Shown here piece after piece: positions 9,523 to 56,181 of a stretch of 64,000 nt of DNA (its first letter is position 1; the number at the start of each line of letters is the position of its first letter). The DNA is taken from the NCBI RefSeq assembly GCF_009696075.1, contig NZ_VUMR01000001.1, positions 1-64,000 on the forward strand, written 5' to 3'. The notes under the pieces were generated by a model, which searched no databases, was not told the origin of the DNA, and was given only the letters and a program-made list of their open reading frames with translations. The stretch is from Holdemanella porci. Its GTDB lineage: Bacteria > Bacillota_I > Bacilli_A > Erysipelotrichales > Erysipelotrichaceae. The translations under genes were made by a program, and so were the position numbers.

Positions 9523-10542
9523 TTATTTTTCCTCCAAAGGCACATAAGTTTCTGGTGTATAATGGATTACTCTTGTACCTCCATCTTCAAACTTAAATGG
9601 AATATGCATTAGATCTTTCATAGCTTCTTTTACAGCATCCTGGCATTCAGGCTGAACATAGAACACCAAGAAGCCTCCACCACCAGCACCTAGTAATTTT
9701 CCACCTAATGCACCAGCTTTCATACCTTTATCATATAACTCATCAATGTTATTAGTAGAAACAGCTGATCCTGTTTGTTTTTTTAAATTCCATGTATGAT
9801 CCAACATTCTTCCAAAATCATCTAAATCAGCAGCACTATCAGTTAATATATTTTCCGCTTTATCTACCAAAGATAACATTTCAAGGTATCTTTTTTCCTT
9901 AGCTTCTCGTGTTTCAATTGATCCAGCATTTGCCTTTTGTACATCAGATGAAAATCTAGTAAATCCCGTAAAAAACATCATTAAATTATTATTTAATTGT
10001 TTCTTTCTTTCCGGCGAAATAATTACAGGTAAAACATCATAAGTACCATCTGTATTAAAATTAATTCTGTTAAATCCACCAAATGAGGCGGCTATTTGAT
10101 CTTGCCAACCACCAGCTTCATCACATAGAACTCGTTCAAGATAAATAGCTTCATCAGCTAATTTTCTCTTGTCTGCATATTTGCCTTTTAAAGCATAAAA
10201 TGCATTCAACATTCCTACCGCAAATGATGAACTAGTACCTAGTCCACTTCTAGCAGGTAAGTCAGCTTCATATGTCAAACGAATTTCATGCATATCTAAC
10301 ATCTGCATTGCATTACGAATCGCTGGATGCTCAATATCATTTACATTTGTTACTCGTTCTGTACGCGAATAAGAAAGTTCAGTACTATAGTCAAAAAACC
10401 TAGGTAAATGTCTAACATTGACATAGCAATATTTATCAAATGTAGTGGATAAAACAGCTCCTCCATGTTTTTTAAAAAAGCTTTCTATATCTGTACCACC
10501 ACCAAAAAAAGACATTCGAAATGGTGTTTGTGTAATAATCAT
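9523..10542 (-). CDS. hddA: D-glycero-D-manno-heptose 7-phosphate kinase (GHMP kinase)
   Basis: The 339-residue protein is a GHMP-superfamily kinase. It has the N-terminal TPFRMSFFGGGTDI, the ATP-binding ARSGLGTSSSFAVG loop and the C-terminal GAGGGGFLVFY. These features match HddA, which phosphorylates D-glycero-D-manno-heptose 7-phosphate at C1. The stop lies just inside the upstream side of the trifunctional gene start, so the two are tightly coupled and together encode all four steps from sedoheptulose 7-phosphate to GDP-D-glycero-alpha-D-manno-heptose. A good AAAAGGAG site precedes the ATG. A fucokinase-like alternative is less likely given the GmhA/GmhB partner. Confidence 0.88.
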   Translation of the reverse strand: MIITQTPFRMSFFGGGTDIESFFKKHGGAVLSTTFDKYCYVNVRHLPRFFDYSTELSYSRTERVTNVNDIEHPAIRNAMQMLDMHEIRLTYEADLPARSGLGTSSSFAVGMLNAFYALKGKYADKRKLADEAIYLERVLCDEAGGWQDQIAASFGGFNRINFNTDGTYDVLPVIISPERKKQLNNNLMMFFTGFTRFSSDVQKANAGSIETREAKEKRYLEMLSLVDKAENILTDSAADLDDFGRMLDHTWNLKKQTGSAVSTNNIDELYDKGMKAGALGGKLLGAGGGGFLVFYVQPECQDAVKEAMKDLMHIPFKFEDGGTRVIHYTPETYVPLEEK

Positions 10543-50735: not shown

Positions 50736-50752
50736 CCTCCTTCTTTTTGTTT
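50723..50752 (+). terminator. Terminator of lacZ
   Basis: AAAGAAGGA (50723-50731) pairs perfectly with TCCTTCTTT (50738-50746). The 6-nt loop holds the lacZ stop codon. T-rich tail TTGTTTAT follows. Confidence 0.8.
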
Positions 50753-50767
50753 ATACGTTTCACTATA

Positions 50768-50803
50768 ATACGTATTGTGTATGCACGTATATTTTGATAT
50801 GAT
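50768..50803 (+). promoter_or_regulatory. Promoter and operator of the hicAB remnant
   Basis: TTGTGT (50775-50780), 17-bp spacer, TATGAT (50798-50803) preceded by TGA (extended -10). ATACGT (50768-50773) and ACGTAT (50785-50790) form a 6-bp inverted repeat that brackets the -35, a good site for HicB autorepression. Confidence 0.5.
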
Positions 50804-50824
50804 AATTGTGCAAAGAGGACACAT

Positions 50825-50979
50825 ATGCCAATGACGTCAAAGGATATGGAGCGACTTATCCTTACGGATGGATGGGTTCCCACAGGCAATACAAACACCC
50901 AACGAAAAAAGGTAAAGTGACTATACCATTATCAAAGTCAACTGAACAATCCATTCTAAAACAAGCAGGGCTTAAATAA
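50825..50979 (+). pseudogene. hicA: hicA mRNA-interferase toxin, frameshifted remnant
   Basis: The first frame reads MPMTSKDMERLILTDGW, the normal HicA start. After the GGATGG at about 50868-50873 the similarity moves to another frame that reads GSHRQYKHPTKKGKVTIPL...SILKQAGLK, with the active-site histidine in GSHRQY, and ends at the TAA at 50977-50979. About seven residues between GW and GSH are missing and the two parts are out of frame. The HG...KG stretch after TIP is also shortened. The toxin is therefore broken, while the antitoxin gene 35 nt downstream is intact. An AGAGG site and a promoter remain upstream. Confidence 0.8.
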
Positions 50980-51014
50980 CTCTGCTTGAATATTTTAAAA
51001 AGGAGGTAAACAAC

Positions 51015-51437
51015 ATGTTGTCAATTTATCCAGCTTGTTTCTTTAAAGAAGAAAATCATTACTCTGTCATTTTTCCAGACTTCAATTACCTTTCCACATG
51101 TGGAGATTCACTACAAGACGCAATGGAAATGGCCGTAGATTGTCTAGCCGGTGCATTGTTCAGCGCAAAACTAGACAATGAAGATATTCCAATTCCTTCA
51201 AAGTTAGAAGAAATTGATCCAACACAAATCGCATCTGAACTTGAATTCGAATTTAAACAATCTTTTGTCACCCTTGTATCTGTTGATGTTGAAGAATATG
51301 CAAAAACACATTTCAATAAAGCTATCAAAAAAACATTAACCATACCCGAATGGTTAAACAATGAAGCTATGAGCAAGAAAATCAATTTCTCGCAAGTTCT
51401 TCAAGAAGCATTGATTGCCAAATTGCATTCGTTGTGA
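51015..51437 (+). CDS. hicB: HicB-family antitoxin
   Basis: The 140-residue protein has the HicB fold: an RNase H-like N-terminal half (YPACFFKEENHYSVIFPDF, then CGDSLQDAMEMAVDCLAGAL) and a C-terminal DNA-binding/RHH-like helix pair (KKTLTIPEWLNNEAM...FSQVLQEALIAKL). HicB binds HicA and represses the operon through its C-terminal domain. A very good AAAAAGGAGG site precedes the ATG. As hicA upstream is broken, this is an antitoxin left alone; it may persist as an autoregulated protein or protect against related toxins. A second, decayed hicB piece lies about 110 nt downstream. Confidence 0.88.
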   Translation: MLSIYPACFFKEENHYSVIFPDFNYLSTCGDSLQDAMEMAVDCLAGALFSAKLDNEDIPIPSKLEEIDPTQIASELEFEFKQSFVTLVSVDVEEYAKTHFNKAIKKTLTIPEWLNNEAMSKKINFSQVLQEALIAKLHSL

Positions 51438-51466
51438 ATTATAAATATCTAACACATTATACGATC

Positions 51467-51535
51467 AACCCTCATACCTTCTATTAAACTATTCCTTTTT
51501 ACTTGGAGTACAAACAATGATACTATCACACCCTC
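51467..51535 (-). repeat. Repeat copy 1: relic of an unknown small gene
   Basis: This stretch aligns with 53500-53578 (shared blocks include ATACCTTCTAT, TTAAACTATTCC and ACACCCTCA-like ends). On the minus strand a short frame reads GCDSIIVCTPSKKE, matching GAGSIIICNPDKG in copy 2. It is a decayed duplicate; the two copies flank the ATPase/TOPRIM genes. Confidence 0.5.
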
Positions 51536-51545
51536 AAAAACAGTA

Positions 51546-51617
51546 GACCACGATAAGGTCGCAAAAGAACTCGAATTTGAATACAAAAGTTGCTTTATTA
51601 AACAGATTGAGCTGTAG
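51546..51617 (+). pseudogene. hicB fragment
   Basis: The frame DHDKVAKELEFEYKSCF followed by IKQIEL and TAG matches the middle of the intact HicB upstream (DPTQIASELEFEFKQSFVTL). Everything before and after is lost, so this is a remnant of a second hicB. The TAG lies in the stem of a strong terminator. Confidence 0.6.
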
Positions 51618-51640
51618 TTACAAACTACAGCTCATTTTCT
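51609..51640 (+). terminator. Terminator after the hicB fragment
   Basis: GAGCTGTAGTT (51609-51619) pairs perfectly with AACTACAGCTC (51623-51633), 3-nt loop ACA, followed by ATTTTCT. It faces the minus-strand TOPRIM gene, whose own terminator I could not find. Confidence 0.75.
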
Positions 51641-51722
51641 GATTCAACCAAAGAGAACTTACAAAAACAATTCAAATCTTGATTTTTTTCATTTTTTGGA
51701 AATTACGCAAATGTTTTCCCTT

Positions 51723-52226
51723 TTATTTCTTAATCAAATTACTATCATTCTTATACTTCGTAAATGCTCCTTTTGGATTTTGATTCCAAAAGGAGTTAAT
51801 ATCAAAATGATGGTTTATTAAAACTTGTTTAAGATTCTTACATTTTGCTAAATCACTCTTATACTCACTATTCGATTTACTCTTCATGAGCTCCTTTACA
51901 TTTGCAATATTACAACTACGCACTAACTCATCCTCTAGATTTTTCACTTCAGGAATAATAATCACCTTTTTCACATTAGACTGTTTTTTTAAGAAATGAA
52001 GATTGTAGTCTAATATATCCGTTTCATCTTTATCTGTATCAAACACCAAGATAACAATCGTTCCAGGTTTTAATTTCATTAAAATATTTTTGTTCAATTT
52101 ATTCTGAATAACATTAAATACATCCACTTTTCCAGCTTGAATACATTGAAAATCTGTTTTTAATGTATTAATAATGGCACGTTCCCCTTCACCTTCAACA
52201 AAGAAATGATAAATATTTTTAGACAT
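51723..52226 (-). CDS. TOPRIM-like small protein, partner of the adjacent ATPase
   Basis: The 167-residue protein resembles compact TOPRIM/RloB-like nuclease domains. The first strand ends in a conserved acidic FFVEGEGERAII motif. VILVFDTDKDETDIL gives the DxD-type second motif (about residues 61-72), and IIIPEVKNLEDELVRS follows, a motif seen in TOPRIM proteins of this type. There are no other domains and no signal peptide. The gene starts 17 nt after the ATPase stop and shares its promoter. ATPase + TOPRIM pairs are known from OLD, PARIS (AriA/AriB) and RloA/RloB-like systems. This pair is smaller than PARIS and I cannot place it in a named type. Nuclease activity is inferred. Confidence 0.65.
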   Translation of the reverse strand: MSKNIYHFFVEGEGERAIINTLKTDFQCIQAGKVDVFNVIQNKLNKNILMKLKPGTIVILVFDTDKDETDILDYNLHFLKKQSNVKKVIIIPEVKNLEDELVRSCNIANVKELMKSKSNSEYKSDLAKCKNLKQVLINHHFDINSFWNQNPKGAFTKYKNDSNLIKK

Positions 52227-52243
52227 GGCAATGGCTCCTAATC

Positions 52244-53371
52244 TTACAAATCTTCAATTTCATATAATAAATCTAAATTTGGTGAAACCGAAAACAAGTC
52301 ATTATCAACTGCATTTCTCAATGAATCCGTACTCTTCTTTAGATAATCGGCCGCATTTATTACCTTAATGACTTGATCATCTTCAAATATTTCTTTCTTT
52401 AAGAAGTTAAAACTATGCTTAGGAAGAGGCAGATCCAATATATCTAAATTATGTGTTGTAAAAAACAACTGACTATTGGGTTTCAACAAAGAAATCATTA
52501 ATGATAAAAAGCCTTTTTCGATATCTGAATGTACATACGAAAATTTTTCATCACAATAATAAAAACTATGTTTATCCGATTTAATAGAAGCTACAATTCC
52601 CGCAATATCAAGACCAGATTTTGTACCACTAGACAACATAGACGGATTTAATATCTTACCATCTTTTATAAGAATCTCTTCCTTTCCCATCTGAATCGCA
52701 TAAGTATCTTCAAGTTCATTTAATTTTATAATTCCCTTAATTGCAGGATCTAATACTTTTAAAGTATGATTCAACACTCTCAAATATTCTTCATTCTCTT
52801 CAATGCGATATCTAGTTTTAAAGAACGCATCAAACGGAAACGAAAATAGCCATGATAAATTCTTCAATTTTTCTAATTCCATAATGTAATTCGTATCTGT
52901 AAAACCTGTCATTATTGAATCTAGTCTTTTTGCACAAGTCTCATAATTTTCTCTTTGCTTAATATCAGTCGACTCAATTCGAATTTTAATATTCTCAGAA
53001 GAATAATCATGATTTTCACTAGGATCAAACTCTGCATTAATTCTGTATAACTTATAAATATCATGATCCATATTCACAAAATCCATTGAAAAAGAAGCTT
53101 TTTTATCTTTATCCGCAATATATGACGTAATAATTTCTACATTTCTTTTTCCAATCAAAATAAATATAGAAAGAATCAGACGACCTAAAGACGTCTTTCC
53201 TGTCGCATTTGAACCCATAATAATATTCACTTTCTTATAGCGAAAATTTGGTAACCCATCCAAATGTTCATGTTCAATATATGAATTCACAATTTTTTTT
53301 GGATACGAAAAATTCACATGAAAATTTCTAAATGCACATAAATTATCCAATTTTAAATCCATAACGATCAT
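52244..53371 (-). CDS. AAA_15/OLD-like ABC-class ATPase, putative defence protein
   Basis: The 375-residue ATPase begins DLKLDNLCAFRNFHVNFSYP, the RecF/SMC-like first strands. Walker A is in IIMGSNATGKTSLGRLIL, an ABC signature-like element in MLSSGTKSGLD, Walker B in FYYCDEKFSYVHSDIEKGF and the H-loop in FFTTHNLDIL. There is no long coiled-coil arm. The DExFSYVHSD pattern is typical of AAA_15 proteins linked to RloA-type and retron or PARIS-like defence. I set the start at the ATG at 53371 (AGAGG upstream). A frame open to 53494 lies upstream of the TTGAGA/TATACT promoter, so it is not the real start. A TOPRIM gene follows. Confidence 0.75.
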   Translation of the reverse strand: MIVMDLKLDNLCAFRNFHVNFSYPKKIVNSYIEHEHLDGLPNFRYKKVNIIMGSNATGKTSLGRLILSIFILIGKRNVEIITSYIADKDKKASFSMDFVNMDHDIYKLYRINAEFDPSENHDYSSENIKIRIESTDIKQRENYETCAKRLDSIMTGFTDTNYIMELEKLKNLSWLFSFPFDAFFKTRYRIEENEEYLRVLNHTLKVLDPAIKGIIKLNELEDTYAIQMGKEEILIKDGKILNPSMLSSGTKSGLDIAGIVASIKSDKHSFYYCDEKFSYVHSDIEKGFLSLMISLLKPNSQLFFTTHNLDILDLPLPKHSFNFLKKEIFEDDQVIKVINAADYLKKSTDSLRNAVDNDLFSVSPNLDLLYEIEDL

Positions 53372-53423
53372 ATTTCTCAACCTCTCTTTTTTTGTATTAC
53401 TTCTACTTATTAGAACTAATATC

Positions 53424-53452
53424 AGTATATACTTATATTGCATTTTTCTCAA
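53424..53452 (-). promoter_or_regulatory. Promoter of the ATPase/TOPRIM pair
   Basis: TTGAGA (53452-53447), 17-bp spacer, TATACT (53429-53424) on the minus strand, about 53 nt before the ATPase start. It is the only good promoter upstream, and it decides the start of that gene. Confidence 0.65.
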
Positions 53453-53490
53453 CCAGAAAAGAAAAGTATAGTTCGTTTGATTTTTAGATA

Positions 53491-53728
53491 TCAAAATGCC
53501 CCATACCTTCTATAGATATGAGGCTTTAAACTATTCCCTTTATCCGGATTGCAAATGATAATACTACCAGCACCCTCAATATATAAATAAGCCTCATACT
53601 TCTCTTTAGCAAATTCAATCAAATGACCTGTATTACCCAACCCTAATACTTTGGATATTCTTTAGACACCCAATTCACTAACAAGAATAATGATTGCACT
53701 TCATCCTGGTATTCCGTATATTCAATCA
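53491..53728 (-). pseudogene. Frameshifted relic of an unknown small gene (repeat copy 2)
   Basis: In one minus frame it reads VIEYTEYQDEVQSLFLLV then NWVSKEYPKY and a stop. One base out of frame it continues KVLGLGNTGHLIEFAKE, KYEAYLYIEGAGSIIICNPD and ends HIYRRYGAF plus TGA at 53493-53491. The join suggests one decayed gene of about 80 residues that lost its start. I do not recognise the family. Its 3' part (53500-53578) repeats at 51467-51535. It fills most of the 354-bp gap between the ATPase start and the carboxypeptidase gene. Confidence 0.45.
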
Positions 53729-54706
53729 CTCTTTAATTTCATAGTTAATAGTTCCATGACCATCTTTGATTTCAACTCTAGCCATGGCACCATTTACTAC
53801 ATACATATGCGGATACGTATGACCAATATCCACCTGAAATACAACATTAATATCAGGTAGTGCTTTTTTAAAAGCGTCTTCATACCCAATTAAATCCGAA
53901 ACATTCTTAAATAGTACACGACCTACCAATATAGCCTTTGTATATTTAAAATACCCCATATACTTCATCTTCAGTAAAGCACGATACACATCACATGAAT
54001 TCATTGAAAAAATATCAAAGAACCAAATAATCCCATCTTCTTTATAACGTTCATTAAATTCTTTTACAAAATCATAAGGCGTGCCCGCCATATCATTTAT
54101 ACTCTCAAAACAACCACCAAGTAATCTACCCGATACACTACAATCACCCACATACTCTGTCTTTGTGTTAAGTATTGGAGCACCATCATTATAAAAATCA
54201 ACATCCTGATGCATAGAACTTGAATGCAATTCACTATTCTTTCCCTTTAAAAAATCAAGACACAAACTCGAATATTCATTAATACTATATTCATCAAAAC
54301 TACCCGCATTAAAACCATACACCGTAGCCAAATCACACTTACAAGTTATGGGAAACAATAAATTTGTAGGATCACTCGCCCCCAAGTACCACTTGGGATT
54401 CTTTTCAATCCAATCAAAATCCATATACGGCAACGTCTCAAACTGAAAGTCACCACCAGCCGCCAACCATATAGCTCCAACACTAGAATCATTCACCAAC
54501 AAATTCAATTCATCAACACGAGTTTTGGCATCAATACTTGGTTCACTATTATTACGAACACTAGCAGTTTCAACAATATGATACCCATTGGATTCAATAT
54601 ACTCTATAGACGCATCAAAACTATCTAGCTTATGCCCTACACCACTCGACATAGCACAAACACCAATTGTATTATACTTCTCATTTAAAAATTTAGGATA
54701 TTTCAT
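53726..54706 (-). CDS. S66-family LD-carboxypeptidase / MccF-like serine peptidase
   Basis: The 326-residue protein fits the S66 family, which removes D-Ala from tetrapeptide murein fragments or, as MccF, hydrolyses microcin C-type nucleotide peptides. The nucleophile serine is in YLGASDPTNLL, the glutamate in LLGGCFESIND and the histidine in VDIGHTYPHMYV, giving the Ser-Glu-His triad. IWLAAGGDFQFETLP is the conserved early loop. I chose the ATG at 54706; a TATAAT box lies at 54734-54729, so the longer frame to 54775 would start upstream of the promoter. No signal peptide: it is cytoplasmic, either peptidoglycan recycling or immunity. Confidence 0.85.
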   Translation of the reverse strand: MKYPKFLNEKYNTIGVCAMSSGVGHKLDSFDASIEYIESNGYHIVETASVRNNSEPSIDAKTRVDELNLLVNDSSVGAIWLAAGGDFQFETLPYMDFDWIEKNPKWYLGASDPTNLLFPITCKCDLATVYGFNAGSFDEYSINEYSSLCLDFLKGKNSELHSSSMHQDVDFYNDGAPILNTKTEYVGDCSVSGRLLGGCFESINDMAGTPYDFVKEFNERYKEDGIIWFFDIFSMNSCDVYRALLKMKYMGYFKYTKAILVGRVLFKNVSDLIGYEDAFKKALPDINVVFQVDIGHTYPHMYVVNGAMARVEIKDGHGTINYEIKE

Positions 54707-54728
54707 ACACAAAAAAACCTCCACACCC

Positions 54729-54756
54729 ATTATAAAGGAAAAACGACAAGACACAA
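54729..54756 (-). promoter_or_regulatory. Promoter of the S66 peptidase gene
   Basis: TTGTGT (54756-54751), 16-bp spacer, TATAAT (54734-54729) on the minus strand. GGAGG lies 11 nt before the ATG at 54706. Confidence 0.6.
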
Positions 54757-54894
54757 AGTCCTGCCGCATTTCCAATAGTTTAAAATAGAAAGGAAGTTTT
54801 ATGTATTAGCACTTAATACACTTTTATTATAATCCCTATACAACCATTTGTCTTTGTACTTTTTAGTGAATTTGTATTAAAATCAGTCATAAAC

Positions 54895-55062
54895 TAACAT
54901 CTTTCAATACTAAATACTGCTTCGAACATAGATTTTCTAAACGAACATCAATAAGAAAACCATTAACATGAATTGCGATATTCAAATTACCATACTCGCT
55001 TCACTTTGTTTCTTAATATTACTATCTACACGAACACTAAAGCTTATTGTATCCATACTCAT
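54895..55062 (-). pseudogene. relB/dinJ antitoxin relic
   Basis: On the minus strand from 55062 the frame reads MSMDTISFSVRVDSNIKKQS then EASMVI and stops. This matches the start of the intact RelB-like gene at 55347-55607 (MDNTTSFNICVDSDILKQ). In another frame NLNIAIHVN, GFLIDVRLENL and later pieces continue the antitoxin pattern. It has at least one frameshift and no toxin gene beside it. The rest of the 571-bp gap 54776-55346 holds no intact gene. Confidence 0.55.
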
Positions 55063-55122
55063 TTATATGGATGTCAATACAAGAGGATAGCCTTAGCCTT
55101 AATAAAATATATTGTGTAAAAT

Positions 55123-55206
55123 CCGATTGATGGTAGAAATACCAAAAACGGTGTACCCTACCAAAACCAAACGGAAAGTGATTGGAAACGTCAGCCTGGA
55201 CCCAGG
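55123..55206 (+). other. Possible transposase N-terminal fragment and GC-rich hairpin
   Basis: A short frame starting ATG at about 55130 reads MVEIPKTVYPTKTKRKVIGN then VSLDPG and stops. The R-K-x-I-G-x-x-x-P-x-[TP]-G pattern is like the start of some IS4/IS1634-type transposases, but the piece is too short to be certain. It ends in a 7-bp hairpin, AGCCTGG/CCAGGCT (about 55192-55207), unusually GC-rich for this region, which may be the end of a lost element. Confidence 0.25.
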
Positions 55207-55346
55207 CTAAAAACAATGAGGACTCGGTAAGATGTTCAGACTCACAACAATCAAATTTAGAGCTTTTACTCTTTTTTTATTCCATTTCGGCAGTCTCAAG
55301 CTAGCGTTTCTTCATTTTCTTAAATATATTTGTTTTCAATGTATAC

Positions 55347-55607
55347 TCACTCTTTCAATACTCTTAACGCTTCCTCTACGTCAGAGTATCGTTTTACCAA
55401 AGGATCACACACAATACGTTCAGCCTCCAACATAGCTGCCATTGTTTCCTTGTTTACATCAAAAGGAAAACCACCTACACAAAGAGACTTATTAAGAAAC
55501 ACATTGATCGCAGTATTCAAATCAACACCTAATTCACCATACATGGCTTCACATTGTTTTAAAATATCACTATCTACACAAATATTGAAACTTGTTGTAT
55601 TATCCAT
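55347..55607 (-). CDS. RelB/DinJ-family antitoxin, orphan
   Basis: The 86-residue protein has the N-terminal ribbon-helix-helix of RelB/DinJ (MDNTTSFNICVDSDILKQCE, then DLNTAINVFLNKSL) and a C-terminal toxin-binding arm (SDVEEALRVLKE). AAAGGAG precedes the ATG. A RelE/YafQ-type toxin normally follows at once; on this strand the next 115 bases (55232-55346) have no such gene. It is therefore an antitoxin without a visible toxin. A decayed copy lies about 285 bp further on. Confidence 0.82.
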   Translation of the reverse strand: MDNTTSFNICVDSDILKQCEAMYGELGVDLNTAINVFLNKSLCVGGFPFDVNKETMAAMLEAERIVCDPLVKRYSDVEEALRVLKE

Positions 55608-55677
55608 AATATTAGCTCCTTTACATTTAAATTTTCATTAAATTATGCTATGCAATTAAGGCAAAAGTAATACTACA

Positions 55678-55832
55678 CTACCCTTTTGCTTTTCTTAACC
55701 CATAAGATATTTCTGCACTCTTTATGGAATCACTTAATTCTTTGATAATTGTCCACTTAACTGTGTATTAATCGTTTTTCCAAATGCATAGGTCGTTCCA
55801 AAGAAACTTTTTTTATTTCTAGTAAGTTTAGA
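55678..55832 (-). pseudogene. Possible relic of an unknown small gene
   Basis: One minus frame reads KKSFFGTTYAFGKTINTQL then SGQLSKN and stops; a neighbouring frame continues ELSDSIKSAEISYGLRKAK to a TAG at 55680-55678. Reading across the shift gives a continuous peptide of about 50 residues. It has no recognisable family and no start, so this is a weak call. Confidence 0.3.
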
Positions 55833-55863
55833 ATCAATTCATTTCAAAGAACAGTTACGTACT

Positions 55864-56031
55864 TCATTTACTGAATCCAAACATTTTTTTGAATTCTTCA
55901 ACATCTTTTAGATCATGATGATCATTTGTTGTTTGAATTTTGATTTTCTTTGTATCCGACATAATACGACAAAATCGATCTATATCAGAACCTTTAATTT
56001 TAAATGTATCTGTAAAACTCTTGATTGCCAT
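55864..56031 (-). CDS. Small hypothetical protein, 55 residues
   Basis: The peptide starts MAIKSFTDTFKIKGSDIDRF and ends DVEEFKKMFGFSK. I place the start at the ATG at 56031, 8 nt after AGGTAGGG; the open frame reaches 56097 without a better site. It is polar and charged with no membrane segment. The composition and its place among toxin-antitoxin remnants suggest a TA-associated or similar accessory small protein, but I do not recognise a family. Codon use looks like that of its neighbours. Confidence 0.5.
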   Translation of the reverse strand: MAIKSFTDTFKIKGSDIDRFCRIMSDTKKIKIQTTNDHHDLKDVEEFKKMFGFSK

Positions 56032-56143
56032 ACAACATACCCTACCTTTCAAAAATAAATAACGCTTACCTAGGCCACAACGGTGTGGAAGACGCATCTT
56101 TTACCCACTTCAGACGTTCCTATATCTATAATACACAAAGTTT

Positions 56144-56181
56144 AACCAACAAAAAAGAGTAGGCGCGCATTCCTACTCTTT
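56144..56181 (-). terminator. Terminator downstream of the cupin gene
   Basis: AAAGAGTAGG (56181-56172) pairs perfectly with CCTACTCTTT (56163-56154), loop of 8, then TTTGTTGG on the minus strand. It could serve the cupin-trpS-galE group. The 163 bases from 56182 to 56344 hold no gene; a plus-strand TTGACG...TATTAT pair there (about 56219-56250) is promoter-like but leads nowhere clear. Confidence 0.6.

What the first reader, a model, noticed from the sequence alone, without database searches (positions are those of the whole stretch)
51723..53452. Compact ATPase + TOPRIM-like two-gene module, candidate antiviral defence system
Seen: a 375-residue ABC/AAA_15 ATPase with complete Walker A, Walker B (DEKFSYVHSD) and H-loop, followed 17 nt later by a 167-residue protein with TOPRIM-like acidic motifs (VEGEGE, VFDTDKDETD), both behind one TTGAGA-17-TATACT promoter. 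Known: split ATPase/TOPRIM pairs occur in PARIS (AriA/AriB), RloA/RloB and OLD-type systems. Inference: this is a minimal relative of these, placed in an islet full of toxin-antitoxin debris. The effector is much smaller than AriB and lacks extra domains, so it may be a distinct subtype.
Basis: partly seen in the sequence, partly recalled or inferred. Interest (0 to 1): 0.72.

Follow-up and report, generated by a model that had tools for sequence, protein, structure and literature searches.

The report
Phage-borne ATPase plus small TOPRIM pair
Two adjacent genes encode an ATP-using sensor and a very small predicted nucleic-acid-cutting enzyme; the same pair rides in many bacterial viruses and mobile elements, so it is most likely an anti-virus 'abort the infection' device related to, but separate from, the known PARIS and AbiL systems.

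Summary
In detail: ATPase (53371-52244, minus, 375 aa), 17-nt gap, small protein (52226-51723, minus, 167 aa). Only the promoter is no better than chance. The two genes form a conserved module. Every fully covered ATPase relative on viral contigs has the small gene directly downstream, often beside terminase or tail genes. In a sample of the same class, 10 of 12 ATPase loci keep it, intact or broken. In the sister species the flanking genes are adjacent and the pair is absent, so it is mobile cargo. The small protein has the TOPRIM signature: E11, DxD 63/65 and an E98-D-E100 motif at the expected points of a confident model (pLDDT 93), in register with AbiLii/RloB by profile comparison. However, no structure search recovers a TOPRIM fold. 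The module is neither PARIS (no DUF4435) nor AbiL as modelled (effector below threshold; ATPases form a separate clade, support 100/99). All members fall in two PHROG families of unknown function. Best reading: a minimal split ATPase/TOPRIM abortive-infection system of phages and mobile elements, with the ATPase as sensor and restraint and the small protein as toxic nuclease. Target (tRNA or DNA) and trigger are unknown. It is a new variant of a known kind.

The parts
52244..53371 (-). SMC/Rad50-like ABC ATPase (AAA_21), 375 aa, PHROG 5836; predicted sensor and regulator
   Evidence: ORF; AAA_21 33.3 bits over cut-off 27; PADLOC AbiLi 74 bits, AriA 35 bits; model pLDDT 86.7, Foldseek to SMC/Rad50 heads, PtuA, retron ATPases and OLD; catalytic motifs invariant
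51723..52226 (-). small TOPRIM-like protein, 167 aa, PHROG 10204; predicted metal-dependent nuclease effector
   Evidence: ORF; invariant E11, G12, D63, D65, E98, E100, K123; model pLDDT 93.2 with TOPRIM order of elements; hhalign to AbiLii/RloB prob 91%; PHROG 10204 in 15 of 15 members
53424..53452 (-). promoter-like TTGAGA-17-TATACT
   Evidence: present, but such sites are not more frequent than chance
51608..51634 (.). 12-bp hairpin between the pair and hicB, terminator-like on the + strand (i.e. for hicB); just downstream of the pair
   Evidence: 3 terminator-like sites found, 0.7 expected
51449..51538 (.). left flank; aligns to the same sister-species segment as the right flank (diverged direct repeat)
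53492..53581 (.). right flank; second diverged copy of the repeat; single copy in the sister genome, which lacks the pair

Best explanation
The pair is a minimal two-gene abortive-infection system spread by temperate phages and other mobile elements. The ATPase is an SMC/Rad50-type ABC ATPase that probably forms an oligomer, binds the small protein and keeps it inactive while monitoring the cell. On phage infection an unknown trigger makes the ATPase release or activate the small protein. That protein is a single-domain TOPRIM nuclease using Mg2+ ions held by E11, D63, D65 and E98/E100. It then cuts an essential nucleic acid, most likely RNA such as tRNA by analogy with AriB, and stops growth before the phage matures. 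SHOWN here: gene order, conserved co-occurrence, motif conservation, mobility, carriage by phages, separate lineage. INFERRED: binding, restraint, nuclease activity, target, trigger, defence phenotype.
For: Linked pair in diverse hosts. Fifteen viral-contig loci were found with the ATPase profile alone (two of them ends of loci already found with the effector). All 13 examined have the small gene immediately downstream, one of them with an internal deletion, and the other two show it. In three further viral loci found by the effector the ATPase lies directly upstream. Ten of 12 genomic ATPase loci at E<=1e-30 keep it, intact or broken. Annotated phage NatCom_17901 and Acinetobacter phage Ab105-3phi, and an Acinetobacter plasmid, carry it. 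Phage context: next to terminase large subunit (L061), terminase small subunits (L062, L068, L070), amidase (L055), baseplate/tail (L056); between portal and terminase on the opposite strand in NatCom_17901. Recent gain or loss: empty site in the sister species. Conflict-gene neighbours: ThsB-TIR directly downstream in L011. Catalytic residues of both proteins are conserved. ATPase fold is of the defence class (PtuA, retron, OLD). Effector profile matches AbiLii/RloB with E, DxD and E motifs in register, while the control comparison gave prob 0.2%. Precedent: PARIS AriB is a two-metal TOPRIM tRNase held by the AriA ATPase (PMC12409363); F. nucleatum AbiLii inhibits E. coli growth (PMC3985639); AAA-TOPRIM_OLD pairs were validated as toxin/neutraliser (PMC10440598). 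The effector is more often broken than the ATPase: frameshifted (G411, G243), internally deleted (L065) or absent (G539, G394) beside an intact ATPase, against one ATPase broken beside an intact effector (L075).
Against: No phage-challenge data for any member. Foldseek did not retrieve TOPRIM structures for the effector. The broken-effector count is small, and some breaks may be assembly errors. In this window the pair sits in a chromosomal islet, not inside a recognisable prophage. For PARIS, ariA or ariB deletion was non-toxic (PMC9122126), so restraint by the ATPase cannot be taken for granted. AbiLi did not neutralise AbiLii in F. nucleatum.
Confidence: 0.72

Rival explanations
1. Same architecture, but the small TOPRIM protein is a DNase acting on phage or host DNA (OLD/Gabija-like), with the Rad50-like ATPase sensing DNA ends or replication intermediates.
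For: ATPase fold closest to SMC/Rad50 heads and also to T. scotoductus OLD; OLD/GajA TOPRIM domains cut DNA (PMC10568477).
Against: Split genes with a tiny separate TOPRIM resemble PARIS/AbiL more than OLD; the profile match is to RloB/AbiLii; the one split system with a known target (PARIS) cuts tRNA.
Confidence: 0.3
2. Addiction-type toxin-antitoxin module that stabilises phages, plasmids and islets, with the ATPase as antitoxin and no true phage sensing.
For: Mobile carriage; effector broken more often than the ATPase; AAA-TOPRIM_OLD pairs neutralise in toxicity assays (PMC10440598).
Against: Catalytic ATPase motifs are strictly conserved, which simple binding would not need; ATPase-only loci persist (G539, G394); ATPase-TOPRIM relatives tested with phage are defence systems (PARIS, Gabija, retron Eco8).
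Confidence: 0.2
3. Housekeeping DNA repair or replication pair (RecF/RecR- or Rad50-like), not a conflict system.
For: SMC/Rad50-type ATPase; TOPRIM domains also occur in RecR and primases (general knowledge).
Against: Patchy distribution: 11 of 392 genomes of the phylum sample; absent in the sister species; carried in phage late-gene regions on the opposite strand; frequent decay.
Confidence: 0.05

Closest known systems
AbiL (AbiLi ATPase / AbiLii RloB-family), Lactococcus lactis (Deng 1999; Dy 2014 PMC3985639)
   Same: Two adjacent genes, ATPase first then a small EGxxE...DxD...FE protein; ATPase top PADLOC hit is AbiLi; profile comparisons significant for both proteins
   Different: Window ATPase scores 74 bits against AbiLi versus 227-316 for RloB-partnered ATPases; effector 14.5 bits, E 0.01; effector about 165-180 aa versus about 185-235 aa; ATPases form a separate clade, 100/99
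PARIS (AriA / AriB, DUF4435), Rousset 2022
   Same: Split AAA ATPase plus TOPRIM effector; both carried by phages or satellites; AAA_21 hit over the rule's 27-bit cut-off
   Different: No DUF4435 match in the effector or the whole genome; a DUF4435 example here is 307 aa, nearly twice the window effector; window ATPase is shorter than AriA (375 vs 464 aa)
OLD family nucleases / Gabija GajA
   Same: Rad50-like ABC ATPase combined with TOPRIM
   Different: One polypeptide in OLD and GajA; here two genes and no helicase or reverse transcriptase partner
AAA-D29 : TOPRIM_OLD pairs of the NetFlax network (Ernits 2023, PMC10440598)
   Same: AAA protein paired with separate TOPRIM_OLD toxin, validated in toxicity assays
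   Different: Whether one of its nodes (D44 = RloB, D60, M70) contains this PHROG 10204 family could not be checked; supplementary data were not available

Membership tests
PARIS | AAA_15 or AAA_21 ATPase at or above cut-off (27 bits for AAA_21) | tested here: met
   AAA_21 33.3 bits; rule quoted from PMC9122126
PARIS | DUF4435 (AriB) partner at 27 bits or more | tested here: not met
   No PF14491 match for the effector at E<=1; none in the whole genome
PARIS | Growth arrest triggered by a phage anti-restriction protein | not testable with these tools
   needs experiment
AbiL | AbiLi ATPase profile | tested here: inconclusive
   E 2e-21, 74 bits, all 16 relatives match, but RloB-partnered ATPases score 227-316 and are a separate clade
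AbiL | AbiLii / RloB-family partner | tested here: not met
   AbiLii 14.5 bits, E 0.01; no hit in own genome at E<=1e-3; no RloB Pfam hit; remote homology only by profile-profile
TOPRIM superfamily | Conserved Glu after strand 1 and DxD after strand 3 in a beta-alpha-beta fold | tested here: met
   E11 after strand 5-10, D63/D65 at the end of strand 56-63; pLDDT 93
TOPRIM superfamily | Structural similarity to solved TOPRIM domains | tested here: inconclusive
   Foldseek PDB and BFVD: no significant hit of any kind
OLD / Gabija | ATPase and TOPRIM in one chain (plus helicase in Gabija) | tested here: not met
   two separate ORFs in all loci read
PHROG 5836 + PHROG 10204 (unknown function) | profile match of both proteins | tested here: met
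   ATPase E 4e-44, effector E 4e-15; 16 of 16 and 15 of 15 members

The most novel reading that the evidence does not exclude
A third independent split ATPase/TOPRIM defence lineage beside PARIS and AbiL, with the smallest single-domain TOPRIM effector, carried as cargo in phage packaging and late-gene regions, and with a trigger and nucleic-acid target of its own.
Probability: 0.45. Interest if true: 0.6.

Novelty: new variant of a known kind. Interest (0 to 1): 0.48.

Why it matters
Split ATPase/TOPRIM systems are a large group of bacterial immune systems in which, as far as I could find, only PARIS has a known target. This module pairs two PHROG families recorded as of unknown function, supplies a bare ~165-residue TOPRIM effector that should be easy to assay and crystallise, and escapes the PARIS and AbiL detection rules, so it is probably missed by current defence-finding tools. 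If active, it would show that phages carry this kind of weapon against rivals inside their own late-gene regions.

Tried and rejected
PARIS membership: rejected, no DUF4435. AbiL proper: not filed as member, because the effector profile fails and the ATPase clade is separate. Direct PDB sequence search with effector profiles: only chance-level hits. Foldseek of the effector against PDB and BFVD: nothing usable. Promoter as evidence: rejected, not above chance. Effector search of viral contigs with the single window sequence: none; alignments were needed. Taxonomic survey centred on other hosts could not be run with locus handles. Phage database search with the window effector alone found only NatCom_17901.

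Full report
OBSERVATION. On the minus strand, an ATPase gene runs 53371-52244 (375 aa) and is followed after 17 nt by a 167-aa gene at 52226-51723, with an AGGAG ribosome-binding site. Relatives share the ATG at 53371, so the longer TTG-started ORF is not the gene. The promoter-like TTGAGA-17-TATACT is present at 53452-53424, but 13 such sites occur in the stretch against 14.0 in shuffles, so it carries no weight.

THE ATPASE. Pfam gives AAA_21 (33.3 bits, cut-off 27). PADLOC gives AbiLi first (74 bits), then Mad3 and AriA. Walker A, the LSSGT signature, Walker B D274-E275 and H307-N308 are conserved across relatives down to 25% identity. The model (mean pLDDT 86.7) matches SMC and Rad50 heads, PtuA of Septu, retron ATPases and T. 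scotoductus OLD. This is the class of ATPase used as sensor in several defence systems.

THE SMALL PROTEIN. No Pfam, NCBIfam or PDB sequence match is significant. Two independently assembled alignments leave the same invariant set: E11, G12, D63, D65, N75, E98, E100 and K123. E15, D99 and W147 are invariant or nearly so. The model is confident (mean pLDDT 93.2, pTM 0.88), with elements E5-10, H13-26, E33-36, H46-50, E56-63, H70-80, E85-93, H97-105. The Glu sits after strand 1, DxD at the end of strand 3 and the E-D-E after strand 4. That is the TOPRIM arrangement; AriB's catalytic E26 is the analogous Glu (PMC12409363). Profile-profile comparison with 15 AbiLii/RloB proteins gives probability 91%, E 1.1e-6, with EG, DxD and FE in register. 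The same query against an unrelated ATPase profile gives 0.2%. A DUF4435 protein read here shows the same triad by eye: FEGHD, DRDFD, SIENNY. Foldseek against PDB and viral models gave nothing significant. The TOPRIM call therefore rests on motifs, topology and profile comparison, not on a structural hit.

CO-OCCURRENCE. In a sample of 395 genomes of the same class, 12 ATPase loci reach E<=1e-30. Ten have the small gene, intact or broken, directly downstream; two (G539, G394) have none. A viral-contig scan made with the ATPase alignment only, so not biased towards the effector, found 15 loci. The 13 examined all have the small gene immediately downstream, one with an internal deletion. The other two are ends of contigs where both genes are truncated. 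Three further viral loci found by the effector have the ATPase directly upstream. Eighteen distinct viral contigs in all carry the pair or its remains. Every member of the two alignments matches PHROG 5836 (ATPase) and PHROG 10204 (small protein), both of unknown function.

MOBILITY AND CONTEXT. The pair occurs in annotated phage NatCom_17901, between portal and large terminase on the opposite strand. It also occurs in Acinetobacter phage Ab105-3phi near the integrase, on a mobilizable Acinetobacter plasmid, and in L006 beside a 1938-aa helicase-like ORF that looks like a conjugative element (my reading). Viral-contig neighbours include terminase large and small subunits, an amidase and a baseplate protein. 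In L011 a ThsB TIR gene follows directly. By eye, neighbours in L085, L089 and L092 look like other conflict genes. In the sister species G001, hicB and the S66 peptidase gene are neighbours and the pair is absent. Both ends of the inserted segment (51449-51538 and 53492-53581) align to the same sister segment, so the window has a diverged direct repeat around the insertion. In the ATPase tree the window copy groups with phage copies L061, L055 and L062 (this fork has support 88/83, below the starred level), which suggests derivation from phage cargo.

EFFECTOR DECAY. Beside intact ATPases the small gene is frameshifted in G411 and G243, lacks its catalytic middle in L065, and is missing in G539 and G394. 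The reverse, a broken ATPase with an intact effector, was seen once: L075, whose ATPase is cut off at its 5' end by unrelated sequence, probably an insertion. G057 and L056/L057 have both genes broken. This fits a costly or toxic effector, but numbers are small and draft assemblies may contain errors.

WHAT IT IS. Most likely a two-gene abortive-infection system: ATPase sensor and restraint, TOPRIM nuclease effector. The steps shown are anatomy, linkage, conservation and mobility. Restraint, triggering, cutting and the target are inferred. RNA, perhaps tRNA, is favoured because AriB of PARIS, the one split relative with a known target, is a two-metal tRNase (PMC12409363) and the effector resembles RloB/AbiLii; DNA cleavage as in OLD/Gabija remains a serious rival. 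PARIS gene deletions were non-toxic (PMC9122126) and AbiLi did not neutralise AbiLii in F. nucleatum (PMC3985639). By contrast, AAA proteins neutralised TOPRIM_OLD toxins in other pairs (PMC10440598). Restraint by the ATPase is therefore plausible but open.

MEMBERSHIP. It fails the published PARIS rule (DUF4435 missing). It also fails the AbiLii test (14.5 bits, E 0.01; absent from the genome at E<=1e-3). RloB-partnered ATPases score 227-316 bits against AbiLi versus 74 here, and the 27 ATPases of this module are separated from 15 RloB-partnered ones with support 100/99. It works like PARIS/AbiL but is a separate lineage. Whether one node of the NetFlax network already contains it could not be checked.

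Noticed in passing
window 50746-56147 vs L081: The stretch between lacZ and trpS is hypervariable between the two species of the genus: besides the pair, 54880-56147 (with a RelB/DinJ-like ORF at 55347-55607) is absent in G001, and G001 has its own insertions near 8918-12037 of L081, including a HigB/HigA-looking pair at 9800-10439.
   Followed up: partly
window 50806-51437: HicB-family antitoxin (PF15919) behind a HicA-like fragment whose start looks degraded: possible orphan antitoxin.
   Followed up: no
L087:10847-11455 (= L011:2038-2646): A ThsB TIR-like gene (PF08937) sits directly downstream of the pair in genome G378, with no ThsA seen nearby; could be an add-on component.
   Followed up: no
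L065:6088-6354: Viral-contig effector with an in-frame internal deletion that removes both DxD and the FEDE motif while its ATPase stays intact.
   Followed up: partly
H19-H43: RloB-type AbiL-like pairs sit on very small (3.5-5.3 kb) plasmids in Klebsiella, E. coli and Salmonella, where the defence genes make up over a third of the plasmid.
   Followed up: no
L022, L066, L067, L073, L074: In Acinetobacter prophage copies the module sits beside an integrase or umuC-like gene at the prophage end, a likely cargo hotspot.
   Followed up: no
PHROG 5836 profile: The PHROG 5836 profile is 1071 positions long although all ATPases read here are 360-450 aa; it may hold fusions of the ATPase with another domain.
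   Followed up: no
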